Positions 51,075 to 61,625 of a DNA stretch of 61,755 nt are shown here, piece after piece (position 1 is the stretch's first letter; the number at the start of each line of letters is the position of its first letter). The DNA comes from Pelagicoccus sp. Its GTDB lineage: Bacteria > Verrucomicrobiota > Verrucomicrobiia > Opitutales > Opitutaceae. Made by a program: the position numbers and the translations under genes. The stretch lies in assembly GCA_028284635.1 (NCBI GenBank), contig JANQRJ010000055.1:1-61755 (forward strand). The letters are read 5' to 3'. The notes under the pieces were generated by a model. It ran no database searches. It saw only the letters and a list, made by a program, of their open reading frames with translations, and was not told the DNA's origin.

Positions 51075-52832
51075 CTACTGGGAATCTGGCGCGGCACTCT
51101 CATTGCCGTCTTCCGCGAGTTTCAGCAGAGCCACGAATGAAACCGTCCATACTGCTGCGATGGAGATGGCGTCCGCCCAGCGGTTCAAGACGAGGAACAT
51201 GGGCAACATGAAGGTCGAGACCTGCCAAACGACGGCAACCGCCAAGCGTATCCAGTTCTTGCGAAGCTCTGCTTGATGAGGCGATTTCCAATCCTTCCGC
51301 CAGAGCCCGTTCGGGCGTATCTGCTGGTAGAAACGATGGAGGGCTTTCGTTGGAGTGGGTTTGAAGGCGAAAGCGCCGGCGATGCAGCCGAGAAGGGAGA
51401 TCGACGAAACGGCGGCGAGCGTTTGGGCTTCGTTTAGTTCCTTTCCAAACGGCGTGATCGCCGCCAGGAGCGAAGCGGCGAACCCGAAGACGATTCCCAG
51501 GCTAAAGCCTTCTCCATTGAAGCGTCCCCAAAACCAGCGCAGGGCGAACGGAACCAGGAAAGCCGGAAAGAGCTGTATGACGATCGTTATCCAGACATCC
51601 ACTACGGACTCGACCACGAGCATGGCGAGAACCAGCCCTAGGGCGACGATCGCGATCGAAGCGACGTATCCGCAACGCACTTGCGCCTTTTCGTCAGCTC
51701 CTTCTCGCAGCGGCAGGTAGAGGTCGCGAACCACGTACGAGGCTCCCGCATTGATGGTGGAGTCGAAGGTCGACATGGAGGCGGCGAAGAGCGCAGCGAC
51801 TACGATGCCGCGAACGCCGTTGGGAAAGATGTCGGACGTCAACGCTTGCGGGAGCAGTTTCTCGGGATCTTCCCCGCCGATCCCCAAGTGGATTCCGATA
51901 ATGGCGATGCCGATCGCCATGGGCCAACGGAAGGCGAAGAGCAGCGTCCAGAGCATGCCTATCTTCTGGCATTCGGAGGGAGTGCGGGCGGCGTAGAAAC
52001 GCTGGGCCATGTAAGCCGAACCTCCACTGCCTCCCAGCCCCTCCACCATGCCTTTCGCCATCCAGGCGAGGAGAAAGGCGCCGAACAGCTCGTACTGGCC
52101 CAATCCGGAGTCGCTCGTCTTCGGCAGTACCGTGTTGAGCCGATTCGCTTCCCACCTTCCTAGCAGCTCGGCGTCGACAAGCATTCCTGCTTGGATGGAT
52201 ATGTAGATGGCGGCAGCCGCTATGAGAAATCCTTGAAAGACGTCGGTCCAAACGACCCCGAAAAGCCCGCTGAGCAGCGTGTAGACCAAGGCGATAAGCG
52301 CCATGCCGATCGAGCAGGTCGCGGGACTGAACGGGAGAAAGACGGCCAGAAACTTGCCCGCCGCAGCGAGAAAGAAGACCACCATGCCGATAGTGATGAC
52401 AAGGTAGGTAAGAGCCGCCAGAAAACGGGCGGACTTGCCTCCAAACCCGTCGCCGAAACGCAGCTTCATCCACTCGGCCGTAGTGACAACCTGACTACGC
52501 TGGTGCCACTTTCCCATGAAGGCGAGAAAGACGGCGATGGGAAGTACCACACCGCCGCGCATCTCGATGAAGAATCCATGAACGCCATACAGGTAGAGCA
52601 TGGTGACGATGGTCATCGTGCCAGCGGCGTCGAGATTGCTGGACATGCCCGACGCTCCAAGGGCCCACCAGGGCAGCTTCCGTCCACCTAGGAAATAGGC
52701 TTCCGAGTCGGTTCGAGCGCGACGCGAAAGGTAGGCTCCGCAGGCCAGCAGACCTAGGAGGTAGATGACGATGATACTGTAGTCGAGCGGGGAGATGGGA
52801 GAGCTAGTAGTTTGAAGGTAGGGCCCGATCAC
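51075..52832 (-). CDS. sodium:solute symporter (SSS family)
   Basis: A 585-aa cytoplasmic-membrane symporter with about 13 spans of the LeuT-fold SSS family (SglT/PutP relatives). YFLGGRKLPWWALGASGMSS is the family opening motif, SAYMAQRFYAARTPSECQK and AALFAASMSTFDSTINAGAS fit the substrate and sodium core region. Position after the PfkB gene suggests sugar transport. Start is a GTG (GTG ATC GGG CCC TAC) that lies inside the palindrome at 52817; no better start is seen before TM1, so either the repeat supplies the start codon or translation begins at a weak codon downstream. Confidence 0.88.
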   Translation of the reverse strand: MIGPYLQTTSSPISPLDYSIIVIYLLGLLACGAYLSRRARTDSEAYFLGGRKLPWWALGASGMSSNLDAAGTMTIVTMLYLYGVHGFFIEMRGGVVLPIAVFLAFMGKWHQRSQVVTTAEWMKLRFGDGFGGKSARFLAALTYLVITIGMVVFFLAAAGKFLAVFLPFSPATCSIGMALIALVYTLLSGLFGVVWTDVFQGFLIAAAAIYISIQAGMLVDAELLGRWEANRLNTVLPKTSDSGLGQYELFGAFLLAWMAKGMVEGLGGSGGSAYMAQRFYAARTPSECQKIGMLWTLLFAFRWPMAIGIAIIGIHLGIGGEDPEKLLPQALTSDIFPNGVRGIVVAALFAASMSTFDSTINAGASYVVRDLYLPLREGADEKAQVRCGYVASIAIVALGLVLAMLVVESVVDVWITIVIQLFPAFLVPFALRWFWGRFNGEGFSLGIVFGFAASLLAAITPFGKELNEAQTLAAVSSISLLGCIAGAFAFKPTPTKALHRFYQQIRPNGLWRKDWKSPHQAELRKNWIRLAVAVVWQVSTFMLPMFLVLNRWADAISIAAVWTVSFVALLKLAEDGNESAAPDSQ

Positions 52833-52891
52833 CGAGCGGGCCGTGTTGCAGGATCCATTCTTCGCGGCCCGCTCGGCGATCGGGCCCTACC
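52817..52891. repeat. family A element overlapping the symporter start
   Basis: GGTAGGGCCCGATCACCGAG and six more bases (52817-52842) pair with 52866-52891 with one mismatch; the centre reads GTGTTGCAGGATCC. The GTG start of the symporter (minus strand) and its first five codons are inside the left arm. Confidence 0.9.
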
Positions 52892-52925
52892 TCGAACCAA
52901 ATTGAAACGCTCACAACGGAAAGCC

Positions 52926-53813
52926 CTATTCCAATCCTATTCGTGCGGGATCATAGTGCGGTTGGGCGCCGCGGGAGCTGGCGACGTAGGCGCCCAGGTC
53001 AGCCGCGTTTTTCAGGGCGACGTTCGCTTCGCGACCTTTCAGGCGATAGACGGCAAATGCGGCGGTGAATGAATCGCCCGCCCCGATAGTGTCCTTCACT
53101 TGCACCGGTCTCGGCGTGACGCGACTCATCTTTTCGTTCGCGTAGCGAATCGCTCCCTCCGCGCCTAGAGTAACGAGCAGCTCGTTGACGCCTAGCAGCA
53201 AGGAGCATTCCCTTATGGCGTCTTCCAGGTCGAAACGTTCCGGGGTAGCCGCGATCAAGCGATAGAGTTCTTCGCTGTTGAGCTTCACTACATCGGCTAG
53301 CCGCGCGAAGTGGAGGGCTCGCTTCAGGTCGTCGTAGGGCGGGCGAAGATTGACGTCGCAGATCTTCGAGCCGCCAAACGATTGCAGGAGTCTCTCGAGA
53401 CAGTATCGACTCGGCTCGGAACGCGTGGCGAGAGAGCCGTAGACCAGGGCATCGGCTTTGAGAACGGTTTCGCGTTCCGCAGAGTCCAAGGAGATTTCGT
53501 CCCAGGCCGACGGATAGCGGATATCGTAGCTTGCGTTCCCCTGCTCGTCCAGTCTGGCGATCGCGACGCCCGTCTCCAGAATATCATGACGCTTGATCAG
53601 GTCGACGCTCATGCCCGCCAATCTCGCTCGATCAATCACCTGGTCTCCCAGAAGATCGTCCCCGACGCAGGTGATCGGCAGGGCTTTCGCCCCTAGCCTT
53701 GCGGCGTGGAACGCGACATTGAAAGGCGCGCCGCCCAGAAAGAGGCCTTCCGAAGCGCAGTCCCAGAGAGCTTCGCCGAAGGTCGCGACAGTTGGCGCAT
53801 CTTCCAGACTCAT
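52926..53813 (-). CDS. PfkB-family sugar kinase, probable fructokinase
   Basis: A 295-aa ribokinase-fold kinase. GEALWD, GGAPFNVAFHAARLGAKALP (N-terminal PfkB signature) and DTIGAGDSFTAAFAVYRLKG (C-terminal signature with catalytic Asp) are clear. Start placed at MSLEDAPTV, giving a 4-bp ATGA overlap with the upstream HAD-glycosidase gene. Together with the GT4 and HAD-GH genes it would phosphorylate fructose released from the disaccharide; a fructokinase sits likewise in the mannosylfructose operon of Agrobacterium and in sucrose clusters of methanotrophs. Confidence 0.9.
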   Translation of the reverse strand: MSLEDAPTVATFGEALWDCASEGLFLGGAPFNVAFHAARLGAKALPITCVGDDLLGDQVIDRARLAGMSVDLIKRHDILETGVAIARLDEQGNASYDIRYPSAWDEISLDSAERETVLKADALVYGSLATRSEPSRYCLERLLQSFGGSKICDVNLRPPYDDLKRALHFARLADVVKLNSEELYRLIAATPERFDLEDAIRECSLLLGVNELLVTLGAEGAIRYANEKMSRVTPRPVQVKDTIGAGDSFTAAFAVYRLKGREANVALKNAADLGAYVASSRGAQPHYDPARIGLE

Positions 53814-55876
53814 ACGATCTTCAACAGGTGACAGGCCTTTATGAATTCCGAGCAGGACCACGCTTGGTAGACCTTGCCCATGGGCTTGCCGGTCTGGCCG
53901 TGAGCCCATTCGTTGAACTCCCATTCGCCGCCGATTCCCGACTGGTTCAGCTTGGCGAGCTTGACCAGCTCCTTGACCGCGAGTTCGTGAAAGCCGAGCT
54001 TATAGATGTACTGTACCCACATTGCTCCTACAAACGGCCAGATTCCTCCATTGTGATAGTGGTGGGGAAGGTTCAGAAGGTTGACCGTGTAGTACGGTTT
54101 CCAGTCGGGATCCCCTGCCTGCACGACGGGGTATAGATTCGCGACAGGAAACGGCTCGTTGACGCTGACCCCCCACATGAAGCGGAAGGTCTTCTGGGCC
54201 TGCTCGATATCCAGGACGTCCAGGAGAAAGGCGAGAATGTTGCCATAGACATCGCAGCGCCAGTCGAAGGAAAAAGGCGTCGTCTGCGCCAGCAAGTACT
54301 GCGTATCGCCAAGCGAGGTCTGTCTATCGGCAAAGGTGTATTCGGTATCCCCGTTCCTTCTGATGCTCGGCCAGAACTTGCGCAGGATGGACCGCTTCAC
54401 GTGGCTGGCCCAGCGCAGATAGTCTCCCGCCATACGGTGCTCGCCGAGCTTCTCCATCATGCGTCCGAAACAGACGTTCGCCCGGTACCAAAGCACCTCA
54501 TCGTAGAGCGGGTTGTAGCTGCGACCGAAGAGGTCGGTCCAGTCGCCGGCTTCGGGCACTTCGATAAGACCGTCGTTGTTGGAGTCCTGAGCGCTGAGCC
54601 AGTCCATGACTCGCTGCAGGCGACCCCACTGCTCGCGAAGGAATGCTATGTCGTTAGTGTGATTGCTGTATTCAAAACAGGCGATGATGACCCAAATCCC
54701 GCTGTCGATCGAACAGATGCCGCCGACCCCGGAGTAGTCTGGCTCTTCGGTATCGATAGAGACGTTGGCGGGCACTTGCCCAGGAGGCGTGATATGGTCG
54801 AGAAGCGTGGTGAGCGTCGCCTTTTGGCACTGGCGAACGTCTTGGTCTTCCAGTTTCAGCGAGCCGATCACCGTGATGGCTCCATCGCGAGCCCAGACGC
54901 TACGGTAGTTCTGGTCCGTGCCTTCGGAGACGTTGTCCTCCAGGGAGCAAGCCGAAAATCCCATCGGCGTGATATTCCGGCGCAGACCTTCGATAGCCTT
55001 TTTGTATGCGACTTTCAGATACGAGAGATCGCTCTTGTCGACATGGGACTCCTCTTCCTCGTGTACCAGACGCAGAGTATCGGGATGAATAGTCGGGTCG
55101 CTCAACTCCAGGGCCCCATCACGGACAGGTTCGCATATCGTCTCGATAGCCCCGAAATGCAAAAGCCCCTCCAGGACGCCATCAGCGCAGGAGCCTTCCG
55201 CTCGATGCACGTCGAGCCCCACGGTGTGCTCGTGAAGCTCTGGCTGGGCATTGCCAACTACGATGCCGTGGATGCCCGGCAGGTGAAACATGGCAGCGTC
55301 GTTTCCCGTGTCGCCCGCCACGACAACCTGCTCGCGCGGAATTCGCAGTCGCTTCAGCAGCCATGAGAGGGCGTTGCCCTTGTTGGCGTACTTCGGCAGA
55401 ATATCGAGGTCGCGACTGGATGAATACACGATATTGACGTCGAGACCGGCCTCTTCGAGCGCCCTTTCCATTCCCTCAAGATCCTCCGAGGCCGCGTTTT
55501 CGAGATACCAGCTTGTTTTGAAGGGAGCTTGGTACTTCTTCGGCTGCCTTGTGGCTTTAGTGAAACTGGATACGACTTCGTCCGCCCTTTCTCGGTCCCA
55601 TCCCTCTTCGAGAACATCGGCGAAGTCCTTTATCTTCGTCTTCTTCTTGAAGCTGTATATGGACGTGCCGACGCCGCAGATCAGGTAGTCGGGTTCGACG
55701 AGGTCGCCACGTTCGATCAGTTCCAGCATGTCGTCCAGCATGCGCCCGGTATTGTAGCACAACCGAGGCCGACGTTTCCGCTTTTGCGTTTCCCTCCACG
55801 TGGCGTTGAAGCGCTCTAGAGCATCCGGCTTGCCGATCAGAGTTCCGTCGATGTCGGTGGAGAAAAAGCGGATCAT
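53810..55876 (-). CDS. HAD sugar-phosphate phosphatase fused to a GH100-like glycosidase
   Basis: A 688-aa fusion. Residues 1-245 are a HAD-IIB phosphatase: DxD in FFSTDIDGTL (Asp8, Asp10), Lys166 in KYANKGNAL, and GDTGND (188-193), the arrangement of sucrose-phosphate or mannosylfructose-phosphate phosphatases. Residues about 285-688 are an (alpha/alpha)6-barrel glycosidase: VWARDG (328-332), PPGQVPANV, CSIDSGIWVII, GDWTDLFGRSYNPLYDEVLW (444-463), a pattern resembling neutral/alkaline invertases of GH100. Start placed at MIRFFSTD; the longer frame adds 66 residues overlapping the synthase gene. If both halves are active, one protein can release and split the same disaccharide. The ATGA overlap with the fructokinase gene supports a common pathway. 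Confidence 0.85.
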   Translation of the reverse strand: MIRFFSTDIDGTLIGKPDALERFNATWRETQKRKRRPRLCYNTGRMLDDMLELIERGDLVEPDYLICGVGTSIYSFKKKTKIKDFADVLEEGWDRERADEVVSSFTKATRQPKKYQAPFKTSWYLENAASEDLEGMERALEEAGLDVNIVYSSSRDLDILPKYANKGNALSWLLKRLRIPREQVVVAGDTGNDAAMFHLPGIHGIVVGNAQPELHEHTVGLDVHRAEGSCADGVLEGLLHFGAIETICEPVRDGALELSDPTIHPDTLRLVHEEEESHVDKSDLSYLKVAYKKAIEGLRRNITPMGFSACSLEDNVSEGTDQNYRSVWARDGAITVIGSLKLEDQDVRQCQKATLTTLLDHITPPGQVPANVSIDTEEPDYSGVGGICSIDSGIWVIIACFEYSNHTNDIAFLREQWGRLQRVMDWLSAQDSNNDGLIEVPEAGDWTDLFGRSYNPLYDEVLWYRANVCFGRMMEKLGEHRMAGDYLRWASHVKRSILRKFWPSIRRNGDTEYTFADRQTSLGDTQYLLAQTTPFSFDWRCDVYGNILAFLLDVLDIEQAQKTFRFMWGVSVNEPFPVANLYPVVQAGDPDWKPYYTVNLLNLPHHYHNGGIWPFVGAMWVQYIYKLGFHELAVKELVKLAKLNQSGIGGEWEFNEWAHGQTGKPMGKVYQAWSCSEFIKACHLLKIV

Positions 55877-55911
55877 AGTCCCGTAAGAACGGATTCCAGG
55901 TCGAATAGCAA

Positions 55912-57264
55912 TCAAGCAATCGGCTCGGCTATCTCGTACCTCGGCAGCTTCGTGCCCTCCACGATGGCGATGAGCTGCTGGGCGATGCCCGTCCACGTAA
56001 ACAAGGACCGGGCAATGCCCGCTCCGTTTTCGCTCATGCGCATGCGAAGCTTCGGGTAGTTGAGCGCCTTGCAAATCGTGATGCCGAAATCGGTCTTGTC
56101 GAAAGTGTTGGCGAAAAGAGCGTTCACTCCGTATTCGAGCGTTCGATACAGACCTCCGTGCGTCGTCACGACCGTAGGCGTCCCACTAGCCATCGCTTCG
56201 ACTGCCGTCATGCCGAAGGGCTCGTAGCGGCTTGGGAGGCAAAAGACGTCGCCCGCTCGATAGAAGTCGGGCATGACATCGTCGGGTAGAGATTCGGTGA
56301 TCGTGACGCGATCCTCCAGCTTGAGGTCGTGGATCTTCTGCACCAACTCGCCGAGTATCGGATCCTCGGCCTGATCCTCGGACTCCGATCCCACTGGCAT
56401 GAAGAGCCTCACGTCGTCGAATCGTTCGGCCACCACCGAGAAGGCGTCCACCAGCAGGTCGAAGCCCTTGTTGCGGCTCAAGCGGCCGATGCTCGTGATG
56501 ACGCGACCCTCGAATCCAAACTGCTCGCGAATCGCCGCTCGCGAAGCAGAGCTGACTGGAAAGAATCGATTGTCGTCGTATCCCGGCGGGATCATGATCA
56601 GCTTGCCGGACGATACCTCGTAGTCCTTCTTGAAGAGATCCATCTGTATCGGGGAAGTGGCGACGACGTAGTCGGCCGCCTTGTAGATGATCGATTCGCT
56701 CTTGATGCGCTGGGTAAAGTTGTAGGTGCTTTCGAAAGTGTCTCTGCTGTCGGGAAAATCGGTCTCCATATTCTGCTTCTTCCAGGTCCCCAGCGAGTGG
56801 GGCGTATGAATGTGCGGGCAACCGAGCGACCCGCTCAAAGTCTGTCCGGCCAGACCAGCGTCCCAGTAGTGCGAGTTGATAAACTCGTAGGACACCTCCT
56901 CTTCTTCGATGCGTCTCAGCGCATTTCGACACCATTCGGGGATGTTCCTGTGGAGAAATTCCTTGGCGATGAAGTCCGGTCCGCCGCAAGGAACGCGGAC
57001 AAGGCGAACGTCTTCATCGACCTCTTCGATTTCCGGCTGGTCTTCGAAACGCCGCGTCCAGATGTCGACCTGGTATCCAAGTTGAGCCAGCTTTTTCGAC
57101 AGCTCCAAAACGTAGACGACCTGGCCTCCCGTATCAGGCATGCCGAGCGGAGGTTCTGCGGCCACATAGCCGTGAGTCGAAATCATGGCGATGCGGGATT
57201 TCGAGTCCGGACTCGGTTTTTCCAGTTCGAAGTGTTCGATGAATTCTTCCGGTTGCGTGTTCAT
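55912..57264 (-). CDS. GT4 disaccharide-phosphate synthase (sucrose-phosphate or mannosylfructose-phosphate type)
   Basis: A 450-aa retaining glycosyltransferase of family GT4, cytoplasmic, joining a nucleotide sugar to fructose-6-phosphate. GMPDTGGQVVYVLELSKKL (residues 40-58) is the sugar-acceptor loop of SPS-type enzymes, NSHYWDAGLAGQ and HTPHSLGTWKK follow, and EPFGMTAVE is the EX7E catalytic motif. NSHYWDAG, WTGIAQQL and RRFEDQPE also recall the mannosylfructose-phosphate synthase of Agrobacterium as I remember it, so GDP-mannose instead of UDP-glucose is a real alternative. First gene of the four-gene cluster. Confidence 0.88.
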   Translation of the reverse strand: MNTQPEEFIEHFELEKPSPDSKSRIAMISTHGYVAAEPPLGMPDTGGQVVYVLELSKKLAQLGYQVDIWTRRFEDQPEIEEVDEDVRLVRVPCGGPDFIAKEFLHRNIPEWCRNALRRIEEEEVSYEFINSHYWDAGLAGQTLSGSLGCPHIHTPHSLGTWKKQNMETDFPDSRDTFESTYNFTQRIKSESIIYKAADYVVATSPIQMDLFKKDYEVSSGKLIMIPPGYDDNRFFPVSSASRAAIREQFGFEGRVITSIGRLSRNKGFDLLVDAFSVVAERFDDVRLFMPVGSESEDQAEDPILGELVQKIHDLKLEDRVTITESLPDDVMPDFYRAGDVFCLPSRYEPFGMTAVEAMASGTPTVVTTHGGLYRTLEYGVNALFANTFDKTDFGITICKALNYPKLRMRMSENGAGIARSLFTWTGIAQQLIAIVEGTKLPRYEIAEPIA

Positions 57265-57728: not shown

Positions 57729-58001
57729 TAGTGTCGTGTCCTGCGGGAAACGTAGCGCGGATCCCGCAGAGCGCATAGGCGTCAACTTAGCCGCCTTTGT
57801 CTGTGAAAGAACGTGTCCGGAGGACTCGTTCCACCCTCTATGCCAGTGATGAAAAGGCGACGATCGGCCTCTAAACGAGCTTAAGTTGACGCCTATGCGC
57901 AGAGCGGGACCGCGTCCGCAGTGCACAATCCAACCGACCGGGACGCGGTCCTGCGGGATCCGCGCTGCTCTTTGCGACATTGCATCCGCGACACGACACT
58001 A
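57729..58001. repeat. composite nested palindrome, copy 3, with outer TAGTGTCGTGTC ends
   Basis: Outermost TAGTGTCGTGTC (57729-57740) pairs with GACACGACACTA (57990-58001). Next inward GTAGCGCGGATCCCGC with CGGGATCCGCGCT, then GCGCATAGGCGTCAACTTA with TAAGTTGACGCCTATGCGC, and on the right GGGACCGCGTCC with GGACGCGGTCC. The central 80 bases (57791-57870) differ from copies 1 and 2, where they are another palindrome. Confidence 0.85.
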
Positions 58002-58085: not shown

Positions 58086-60290
58086 ATGAGAACAACGCGA
58101 TTTTTATTGGCAACGACCGCTCTGCTTTCCGTGGAGATCGGATTCGGACAAACCCGCGACGATTCGGCGGTCGTCGACCTGGACCCGATGGTGGTCACCG
58201 CAAGTCCCTTCGTCGAACGCAAGGAGGAGCTCGTAGTCCCTGCGGGCGAATTGAGGGGCGAAGCGCTGAGCCGCTCGGCGGAGTCCTCCCTGGGAGCGAC
58301 CTTGTCCGGGGAGCCGGGGGTCCACTCGACCTACTACGGCCCGGGAGCTGGGCGACCGATCATCCGAGGCTTCGATGGCGACAGGATACGTATCCTTAAT
58401 CAGGGTACAGATAGCTTCGACGTTTCCCAGACCAGTCCCGACCACGGGGTGAGCATCGAACCGCTTTTCGCTGACGATATTGAGGTAGTACGCGGTCCGG
58501 CATCCTTGCTCTACGGGAACGCGGCGATCGGCGGTGTGGTTAACGTACTGGGCAAAGAGCTGCCGCGAGAGCGGGCCTTGGCTCCTTTCAGCGGCCAAGC
58601 CGAAGCCTTTTACGGCTCGGTCTCCGACGAGAAGTCCTTCGGGCTTGCCCTTCAGGGCGGGCAAGGCGACTTCGCTTGGAGCGCTGGTTTCCTGGATCGC
58701 CAGTCAAACGATTTCGAGATCCCTGGCTTCGCCGAATCGATCTATCAGATGGAAGCCGAAGAACACGAAGAGGAACATGGCCACGAAGAGGGCGAGGAGC
58801 ATGAGGAGGAAGAGCACGAGGAGCATGAAGAACATGAGGAGGAGGAAGAAGTCTTCGGCGTTCTGGAAAACAGCTTCGTAGACACGCGTTCCGGCTACCT
58901 CGGCTTGGGCTGGTTCGGCGAGAGCGGAAGCTTGGCTGTGTCCTACTCCGAATACGCTACCGACTACGGCGTTCCGGGACACTCTCACGCCCATGGACAT
59001 GAGCACGAAGAAGGTGAAGAACACGAAGAAGGCGAGGAGCATGAGGAAGAAGAGCACGAGGAACACGACGAACATGGCGAAGAAGGAGTCTCCATCGATC
59101 TCGACCAGTCGCGTTTCACTCTACGCGGCGAATTGATCGACCCGGTTGATTTCCTGGAGCGCCTAGAACTTGATCTCACCTTCGGCGACTACAGGCATAC
59201 CGAAATTGAGGGCGAGGAAGTAGGCACGGTTTTCGATCGCGACGGCTACGAGCTGCGTCTTATTGGCGTACACAGCCCATTTGGCGATTTCACAGGAGCC
59301 TTCGGCTTCCAAGCCAAGGTCGACGACTTCTCGGCGGTCGGGGAAGAGGCCTTCATCCCCAGCTCCGAAACTTCCCAGTATGGGATTTTCGTCATGGAGC
59401 GTCTCAACCAGAATTGGGGAGCGTGGGAGTTCGGCGCTCGCCTGGAAAGCGTCGAAATCGACCCGGCCGATACTGATCTCACTGACAGAAGTTTCGACAC
59501 CATCAACGCCTCAGCGGGCTTCGTAAATCGTCTCACTGAAGGTTCGCTCGCTTCGGCAAATCTCGTTTACGCGGAACGGGCCCCCAATGCGAGCGAGCTG
59601 TTCGCTTTCGGTCCGCACGTCGGCACGCAGAGCTTCGAGATCGGCGACTCCACGCTCGGCAAGGAATCGTCTATCAGCCTCGACCTCTCCTACCGGCTGA
59701 CGGCTGGAAAGATCACCGGGGAAGTGACCGCATTCTACTCGGACTTCAGCGACTACGTCTATTTACAGTTTCTGGATCACGAAGCGGTAGAGGATCTGTA
59801 TGGAGAATTGGATACGGATGGACTTGACGTTTTCCGCGCGACCGCCGTCGACGCCAGTTTCTACGGCTTTGAAATCGATCTGCGCTACCACCTGGTCGAC
59901 GAGGCGGATCGCGCCATGCACATCGATCTCATCTACGACCAGACTCGAGCGACCAACGATAGCTTCAACGAAAACCTGCCCCGCATTCCGACCCGTCGCC
60001 TGGGCTTGCGCTACGAGTACGCTTTTGGTCCTTGGCTATTGGGCGCGGAAGGACGCTGGAACGACAGCGCCTCGCATCTCGGGCCGAATCAGCTTCCGAC
60101 CGACAGCTACACGCTTTGGGGCGCCGACGCTCGCTACCGTATGCTTGTTTCCGATGCGGCGATCGTGGACCTCTTCGTGGTGGGAACGAATCTCGGCGAC
60201 GAAGAAGCCCGCCCGAACACTTCGTTCTTGAAGGACCTCGCTCCGCAGCCGGGACGCAACGTGAAGCTTGGCGTGCGAACAAGCTTCTAA
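58086..60290 (+). CDS. TonB-dependent receptor with His/Glu-rich loops, ZnuD-like
   Basis: A 734-aa outer-membrane receptor. Signal peptide MRTTRFLLATTALLSVEIGF, plug domain about 45-155 (LSGEPGVHSTYYGPGAGRPI, VSIEPLFADDIEVVRGPASL), then a beta-barrel ending in Phe (VKLGVRTSF). Two extracellular-loop segments, at about residues 222-256 and 299-335, consist almost only of His, Glu and Asp with some Gly, suited to capture Zn2+; ZnuD of Neisseria has similar loops. It is followed by a COG0523 GTPase gene, which supports a metal role. A palindromic operator candidate lies upstream. Confidence 0.9.
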   Translation: MRTTRFLLATTALLSVEIGFGQTRDDSAVVDLDPMVVTASPFVERKEELVVPAGELRGEALSRSAESSLGATLSGEPGVHSTYYGPGAGRPIIRGFDGDRIRILNQGTDSFDVSQTSPDHGVSIEPLFADDIEVVRGPASLLYGNAAIGGVVNVLGKELPRERALAPFSGQAEAFYGSVSDEKSFGLALQGGQGDFAWSAGFLDRQSNDFEIPGFAESIYQMEAEEHEEEHGHEEGEEHEEEEHEEHEEHEEEEEVFGVLENSFVDTRSGYLGLGWFGESGSLAVSYSEYATDYGVPGHSHAHGHEHEEGEEHEEGEEHEEEEHEEHDEHGEEGVSIDLDQSRFTLRGELIDPVDFLERLELDLTFGDYRHTEIEGEEVGTVFDRDGYELRLIGVHSPFGDFTGAFGFQAKVDDFSAVGEEAFIPSSETSQYGIFVMERLNQNWGAWEFGARLESVEIDPADTDLTDRSFDTINASAGFVNRLTEGSLASANLVYAERAPNASELFAFGPHVGTQSFEIGDSTLGKESSISLDLSYRLTAGKITGEVTAFYSDFSDYVYLQFLDHEAVEDLYGELDTDGLDVFRATAVDASFYGFEIDLRYHLVDEADRAMHIDLIYDQTRATNDSFNENLPRIPTRRLGLRYEYAFGPWLLGAEGRWNDSASHLGPNQLPTDSYTLWGADARYRMLVSDAAIVDLFVVGTNLGDEEARPNTSFLKDLAPQPGRNVKLGVRTSF

Positions 60291-60347
60291 ACCTGGCTGT
60301 GCCAGGAGGCTGTAGGCATTTAGGCTGAAGGTGTTTAGGTTTGGATA

Positions 60348-61625
60348 TTGCGCGGCGATAAGGGTCTCGGGAATTTGAATCCGGATTCGAAAAACGCCGT
60401 TAACGAAGAGGATGCGCCGGACGAGCGCATCCCTCTTCTCGTTTTGAGCGGATTTCTTGGGGCGGGCAAAACCACGCTGCTCAACCACCTGCTTCGCCAG
60501 GCAAACGGGCGCCGGATCGCGGTCTTGGTGAACGATGTGGGCGAGATCAATATCGATGCCGCCCTGACGCGCGAGGTTGCCCAAGTCGAATCGAAGTCTG
60601 CCGACGACATCGTCGAGCTGAGCGATGGCTGCATTTGCTGTGGCATTCAAGGCGCCTTTGGCGAAGCCGTCATCAAGCTGGCCAAGCAGGCTCCTGACTT
60701 CATCGTGGTGGAAGCCACTGGCATCGCCGAGCCGCAACGCATCATCGCCAGCCTGGCAGCTATGGACGAGGATGGCGTCTCGCCTCTCGACTACACGCGT
60801 ATCGTAAATCTGGCGACAGTGATTGACGCTCAATGGTGGGGCAAGAAGGTGCAGGAAACTCACCTTCCGATGCGGCGGTCTTTGCTGTTGCTGTCGGATC
60901 CTCGCCGACCTCTGAGCGAACTGCTAGCCGTGCAGGTCGAGTACGCAAACGTGGTCATTCTCAACAAGACAGACTTGGCGGACGAGGAAGCGCTCCGGCG
61001 TTCGCGAGCCGCTCTTGCCGCCATCAATCCCACAGCCGAGACGCTTTTGGCCCGCGAAGGGCAAGTCGAGCTTGAGCAGCTGCTCGAAGTCTCCCGCTTC
61101 GACTTTTCCGATATTCAACGCAGCGCCCGATGCGATCTGGAGCTCGGGGCGAAAGCGGAAAATGCCAAGCCGAGCGTCCAGCGGGGCCACGATCACGGCG
61201 ACTTTGGACTGATGGCGTTCGTCTACAAGTCGCGGGTTCCGATACGCCAGGACAAGTTCATCGCCTTCCTGCGCAGCGGCATACCCGGCTTGCTGAGAGC
61301 CAAGGGCTTCGCGTGGACGGATCGCGAGCCGGACCGAGTCGGTTTTATGTCTCTCGCGGGAGACGTTCTCCGATTCGATCACCTCGGCAAGTGGATACAT
61401 GCCTTGGTCAAGGAAGGCTCCATGGACCATTCTCGCATTCCGGCCGAGGTTTGGAAGAAATGGGATTCCAGCGTCGGCGACCGGCGGCAAGAGATCGTCT
61501 TCGTCGGCATTGACCTGGATCGCAAAAGGATAGAGGAAGAGCTGAGGAGTTTTGAAAACGCGGAGGCCCTCAAGCCCTTTGCTCCCCTTCAAGACATTCC
61601 GAACTCGAGCCAAATTCGCCAATGA
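60348..61625 (+). CDS. COG0523/CobW-type GTP-dependent metallochaperone
   Basis: A 425-aa G3E GTPase of the COG0523 group. Walker A GFLGAGKTT (35-43), the GCICC metal site (94-98), EATGIAEP (switch II), NKTD, and the CobW C-terminal domain (MAFVYKSRVPIRQDKFIAFL). A His-containing linker (QRGHDHGDFG) could bind metal. Members deliver Zn, Co or others to client enzymes. Start: no ATG precedes Walker A in frame; TTG at 60348 is taken, TTG at 60375 is possible. It follows the TonB gene after 57 bp; likely co-transcribed. Confidence 0.9.
   Translation: MRGDKGLGNLNPDSKNAVNEEDAPDERIPLLVLSGFLGAGKTTLLNHLLRQANGRRIAVLVNDVGEINIDAALTREVAQVESKSADDIVELSDGCICCGIQGAFGEAVIKLAKQAPDFIVVEATGIAEPQRIIASLAAMDEDGVSPLDYTRIVNLATVIDAQWWGKKVQETHLPMRRSLLLLSDPRRPLSELLAVQVEYANVVILNKTDLADEEALRRSRAALAAINPTAETLLAREGQVELEQLLEVSRFDFSDIQRSARCDLELGAKAENAKPSVQRGHDHGDFGLMAFVYKSRVPIRQDKFIAFLRSGIPGLLRAKGFAWTDREPDRVGFMSLAGDVLRFDHLGKWIHALVKEGSMDHSRIPAEVWKKWDSSVGDRRQEIVFVGIDLDRKRIEEELRSFENAEALKPFAPLQDIPNSSQIRQ

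What the first reader, a model, noticed from the sequence alone, without database searches (positions are those of the whole stretch)
51075..57264. Four-gene cluster with a phosphatase-glycosidase fusion that may both make and break one disaccharide
A GT4 synthase (SPS/mannosylfructose-phosphate synthase type), a HAD phosphatase fused to a GH100-like glycosidase, a PfkB kinase and an SSS symporter are co-oriented, the middle two overlapping by ATGA. Synthase plus phosphatase gives a free disaccharide such as sucrose or mannosylfructose; the fused glycosidase would hydrolyse it and the kinase would recover fructose-6-P. Having the phosphatase and hydrolase in one chain looks futile unless the halves are regulated separately or the glycosidase acts on another sugar. 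As I recall, Agrobacterium (mfpsA-mfpsB-frkA) and methanotrophs (sps-spp-fruK-ams) have the pieces, but I do not know a described fusion of this kind.
Basis: partly seen in the sequence, partly recalled or inferred. Interest (0 to 1): 0.78.

Follow-up and report, generated by a model that had tools for sequence, protein, structure and literature searches.

The report
Enzyme fusion making and breaking disaccharide
A bacterial gene cluster carries one protein that appears to finish the synthesis of a protective fructose-containing disaccharide with one half and to break that sugar down with the other, an arrangement shared by a number of Verrucomicrobiota and not found described in the papers searched.

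The parts
55912..57264 (-). GT4 synthase, 450 aa, MfpsA-like (mannosylfructose-phosphate synthase type, by a recalled reference); GGQ, HSLG His, EPFG Glu kept
53810..55876 (-). HAD phosphatase - clan GH-G glycosidase fusion, 688 aa
55127..55876 (-). HAD half (about residues 1-250), sucrose-phosphatase type; motifs DIDGT (D8, D10), NTGR, ANKGN Lys, GDTGND kept
55085..55126 (-). low-confidence linker, about residues 251-264
   Evidence: block pLDDT 49 and 56
53813..55084 (-). GH100-like (alpha/alpha)6 glycosidase half, residues 265-688; proposed acid D448 (codon 54533-54535), proposed base E656 (codon 53909-53911)
53810..53813 (-). ATGA stop/start overlap between fusion and kinase
52926..53813 (-). 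PfkB-family kinase, 295 aa, proposed fructokinase
52816..52892 (.). inverted repeat of a genome-wide REP-like family, between kinase and symporter
51075..52832 (-). SSS-family Na+/solute symporter, 585 aa; membership of the transcript uncertain

Best explanation
The cluster makes and recycles a compatible-solute disaccharide with a fructose unit, more likely mannosylfructose than sucrose. The GT4 enzyme joins a nucleotide-activated hexose to fructose-6-phosphate; the HAD half removes the phosphate; the free disaccharide accumulates under osmotic stress; the glycosidase half (inverting, proposed acid D448 and base E656) hydrolyses it when no longer needed; PfkB returns fructose to fructose-6-phosphate. 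Fusing phosphatase to hydrolase gives 1:1 dosage of the last making step and the breaking step, so the pool is set by synthase flux and by whatever restrains the glycosidase. Shown here: gene order, families, fold, conserved catalytic residues, conserved linkage. Inferred: all activities, the identity of the sugar, the osmotic role and the regulation.
Against: No activity measured. MfpsA and MfpsB were recalled, not fetched. The window's own HAD passes the NCBIfam SPP cut-off (186.8 against 183.65), whereas the five other HADs scored (125.5 to 167.0) and recalled MfpsB (141.5) do not; this leans to sucrose for the window. Three fusions sit beside true SPS. Identity to GH100 is about 20%, and Pfam also scores GDE_C, Bac_rhamnosid6H, MGH1-like and DUF608 over cut-off. 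The D448 match rests on a weak local alignment (4.7 bits) and E653 is as invariant as E656, so both residue assignments are provisional. The window has no MscS in the cluster. In L044 and L050 the fused HAD lacks its Lys and no second phosphatase was seen on stretches that contig ends cut short. In Acidimicrobiia the GH lies on the opposite strand to GT4 and phosphatase. More distant stand-alone relatives of the GH sit in assorted contexts. No NCBIfam kinase model reaches its cut-off for PfkB.
Confidence: 0.5

Rival explanations
1. Same make-and-break module, but the sugar is sucrose: the GT4 uses a glucose nucleotide, the HAD half is a true sucrose-phosphatase and the GH half an intracellular invertase.
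For: Best solved relatives of both halves are sucrose enzymes. The window HAD passes TIGR01485. In G066, G243 and G254 the fusion lies beside SPS over the TIGR02472 cut-off (599-615 bits against 576). By the rule used only one GH position (451, Gly to Asn) is a fixed difference between four SPS-paired GHs and the 25 other GHs of that clade, so one substrate for all is possible.
Against: The window GT4 scores 185.3 bits on TIGR02472, cut-off 576, and groups with recalled MfpsA at 62.6% identity rather than with the SPS structures. No genome of 288 holds both the window-type GT4 and SPS (about 1.5 expected by chance, so weak).
Confidence: 0.28
2. The glycosidase half acts on another sugar (for example an imported oligosaccharide), and the fusion only co-locates two sugar enzymes.
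For: GH half is about 20% identical to GH100 and scores over cut-off in five Pfam families of different specificity. An SSS symporter is next to the cluster. Remote stand-alone relatives sit in other contexts, some with transporters or other glycosidases.
Against: The near GH relatives stay near a GT4, and in nearly every complete stretch a phosphatase, in Verrucomicrobiota, Planctomycetota, Chloroflexota and Actinomycetota, fused or not (exceptions G119, where the GT4 is elsewhere, and L046, where no phosphatase was seen). No signal peptide was looked for; HAD phosphatases of this kind act inside the cell (general knowledge).
Confidence: 0.15
3. One half is a non-catalytic sensor in the fusion, as in the degenerate HAD tail of SPS.
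For: 3 of 3 Anaerolineae fusions lack the motif III Lys of the HAD half; SPS tails in the same kind of cluster are degenerate, 4 of 4 examined.
Against: In the window and the 31 other non-Chloroflexota rows the HAD motif residues are kept and the proposed GH catalytic pair is invariant.
Confidence: 0.05

Closest known systems
Agrobacterium mfpsA-mfpsB-frkA mannosylfructose operon
   Same: GT4 synthase, HAD phosphatase and PfkB kinase in the same order; recalled MfpsA 62.6% identical to the window GT4 and 75.1% to relative L087; recalled MfpsB 44% to the window HAD.
   Different: As recalled it has no glycosidase fused to the phosphatase.
Cyanobacterial sucrose pathway: SPS, SPP and GH100 invertase InvA/InvB
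   Same: GT4 synthase, SPP-fold phosphatase and GH100-fold hydrolase.
   Different: Phosphatase and invertase are separate proteins there (general knowledge); the GT4 here is far below the SPS cut-off.
Methanotroph sps-spp-fruK-ams cluster
   Same: Making and breaking enzymes plus a kinase in one cluster.
   Different: The breaking enzyme is amylosucrase, not a clan GH-G glycosidase, and is not fused to the phosphatase.
GH63 mannosylglycerate hydrolase (and the related glucosylglycerate hydrolase)
   Different: Clearly below GH100 in fold score; different aglycone; fusion to a phosphatase not known to me.

Membership tests
Sucrose-phosphatase (SPP, TIGR01485 / PF05116) | HAD-IIB fold with motifs DxDGT, T/S, K, GDxxND | tested here: met
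   PF05116 239 bits; Foldseek to 1s2o E 8.1e-18; motifs intact
Sucrose-phosphatase (SPP, TIGR01485 / PF05116) | Score over the equivalog cut-off 183.65 | tested here: met
   186.8, marginal; the five other HADs scored fall below, 125.5 to 167.0
Sucrose-phosphatase (SPP, TIGR01485 / PF05116) | Dephosphorylates sucrose-6F-phosphate | not testable with these tools
   no assay
GH100 alkaline/neutral invertase | (alpha/alpha)6 fold with GH100 as nearest solved relatives | tested here: met
GH100 alkaline/neutral invertase | Catalytic Asp and Glu | tested here: met
   D448 and E656 invariant; alignment to InvA good for the Glu region, weak for the Asp; E653 is also invariant; InvA numbering D188/E414 is recalled
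GH100 alkaline/neutral invertase | Pfam PF12899 over cut-off | tested here: met
   62.0 against 23.6 bits, but four other GH families also over cut-off
GH100 alkaline/neutral invertase | Hydrolyses sucrose specifically | not testable with these tools
   no assay
Sucrose-phosphate synthase (TIGR02472) | Score over equivalog cut-off 576 | tested here: not met
   185.3 bits
Mannosylfructose-phosphate synthase (MfpsA) | Clusters with characterised MfpsA | tested here: inconclusive
   62.6% identity and grouping with the same set, but the reference was recalled and unverified
Mannosylfructose-phosphate synthase (MfpsA) | Uses GDP-mannose and fructose-6-phosphate | not testable with these tools
   only residues of the kind that TeSPS uses were checked, GGQ among them
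MshA (TIGR03449) | Score over cut-off 462.5 | tested here: not met
   190.9 bits

The most novel reading that the evidence does not exclude
The fusion is a dedicated make-and-break enzyme for mannosylfructose, holding a mannosylfructose hydrolase of which I know no earlier example, in which one residue near the catalytic acid (Gly451, Asn in the four SPS-paired relatives examined) tunes the glycosidase to mannosyl- or glucosyl-fructose to match the partner synthase. In Chloroflexota the phosphatase half has become a non-catalytic sensor controlling the hydrolase.
Probability: 0.25. Interest if true: 0.78.

Novelty: new variant of a known kind. Interest (0 to 1): 0.6.

Why it matters
In the compatible-solute pathways that I know, making and breaking enzymes are separate proteins that can be regulated apart. 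A conserved single chain holding the last making step and the breaking step raises a direct question about how futile cycling is avoided. It also gives a candidate degrading enzyme for mannosylfructose, for which I recall none, and a natural set of fused, split and half-degenerate versions that allow the question to be tested with purified proteins.

Full report
OBSERVATION. The window lies in a 4.57-Mb draft genome (96% complete). All are on the - strand: GT4 55912-57264, fusion 53810-55876, PfkB 52926-53813, SSS 51075-52832. The fusion starts 35 bp after the GT4 stop, and its stop overlaps the kinase start by ATGA. Pfam gives the fusion S6PP (6.9e-71, residues 4-242) and GH100 (5.7e-17), with GDE_C and three other glycosidase families also over cut-off. 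A 93-bp gap holding a repeat of a genome-wide family separates PfkB and SSS, so the symporter may be on a separate transcript.

DISTRIBUTION. In 288 Verrucomicrobiota genomes drawn evenly from the phylum, the window's own included, 45 have some match and 23 a full-length fusion. The window-type GT4 (56% identity or more) is in 20 genomes, all with the fusion. It lies within about 2 kb of the fusion in 19; in two of these (G091, G271) an SSS gene on the other strand lies between, in G169 a channel gene, and in G119 the GT4 is on another contig. The other three fusion genomes (G066, G243, G254) pair the fusion with an SPS over the equivalog cut-off (three of the proteins also). SPS over the cut-off is in 22 of 288 genomes, none of which has the window-type GT4. 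Two genomes have phosphatase, GT4 (44%) and GH as separate neighbours (G251, G178). A genome-contig scan found 44 loci, partly the same contigs. They include fusions in Prosthecobacter, Verrucomicrobium, bins labelled Akkermansia and Spirochaetales, and three Anaerolineae. They also include unfused GH near GT4 and phosphatase in Pirellulaceae and, with the GH on the opposite strand, Acidimicrobiia. G143 has a second locus with SSS, GT4 and a free phosphatase but no GH.

WHICH SUGAR. The GT4 is neither SPS nor MshA by NCBIfam cut-offs. It keeps the equivalents of residues that TeSPS uses (PMC7264703: abstract and passages seen): His158, Glu331 and the Gln of GGQ, with Lys for Arg105; GGQ reads GGM in MshA. 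An MfpsA sequence that I recalled is 62.6% identical to the window GT4 and 75.1% to that of L087, whose letters no call had shown me, and joins L086, L087 and L095 at 95/97. These belong to the window's family, probably Opitutaceae (my inference). Its recalled end, WNDGD, recurs at the end of the L103 GT4, printed only afterwards. A recall shaped by the window would sit nearest the window, so I take it as probably sound, but it remains unverified. A recalled MfpsB joins the verrucomicrobial-type HADs, most of them fused, at 100/98. Against this, the window HAD itself passes the SPP cut-off narrowly, while the five other HADs scored and recalled MfpsB do not. The own genome has a GDP-mannose-pyrophosphorylase-like frame, 289 bits on a two-domain model with cut-off 373, which does not decide between the sugars. 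I put mannosylfructose ahead of sucrose by about two to one.

WHY NOT FUTILE. The linkage is shared by several phyla in fused and split form, so the pairing is probably useful. Where a locus has two HADs, one is degenerate: in Anaerolineae L043 the fused HAD, beside an intact separate phosphatase; in four SPS loci the SPS tail, beside an intact fusion in three (L097, L098, L099) and an intact free phosphatase without GH in one (L102, G277). L044 and L050 have a fused HAD without the Lys and no second phosphatase on the stretch held. Five of 25 stretches (L079-L103) carry an MscS-type mechanosensitive channel in the cluster: four directly downstream of PfkB, one between GT4 and fusion. A channel that opens on osmotic downshift next to a hydrolase fits disposal of an osmolyte. 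The window lacks this channel. The Paracoccus plasmid locus L077 has a weak GH32-like protein (24.6 bits, cut-off 22.1) beside an HAD and a 44% GT4, perhaps an independent make-and-break pairing.

A LEAD. With the rule of at least 90% conservation in the 25 other GHs of the verrucomicrobial-type clade and fixation of a different letter in the four SPS-paired ones, a single position differs: 451, Gly to Asn, three residues from the proposed acid. The four form one clade, so this could be descent alone.

NOVELTY. Known pathway parts, in a fusion that five literature searches did not show, in an open-access library that lacks most subscription journals and of which I saw listings only. Hence new variant of a known kind.

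Noticed in passing
window 52816-52892 and many places in G000: A roughly 77-bp inverted repeat of REP-like type: 80 matches listed, from the 40 of 179 first-look candidates that were scored; many places match on both strands.
   Followed up: partly
window 58086-61625: TonB-receptor-like ORF with His/Glu-rich stretches followed by a CobW-type GTPase ORF, which looks like a zinc-uptake pair; read from the translations only.
   Followed up: no
L043, L044, L050: Anaerolineae fusions whose HAD half has lost the motif III Lys (and in L044 two further motif residues, in L043 the motif I Thr), a possible non-catalytic phosphatase domain.
   Followed up: partly
L045 from 7296; L047 from 7236; L066 from 7488: Open frames of the stand-alone GH genes extend about 170-255 aa upstream of the GH match without a Pfam hit; the true starts are uncertain, and in L047 the frame overlaps the phosphatase gene.
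   Followed up: no
L086, L087, L088, L094, L095: MscS-type mechanosensitive channel gene in the synthase-fusion cluster.
   Followed up: yes
L103 (G143 C27): Second locus in one genome with symporter, synthase and free intact phosphatase but no glycosidase.
   Followed up: partly
window about 57740-57970: Long inverted repeat upstream of the GT4 gene, seen by eye.
   Followed up: no
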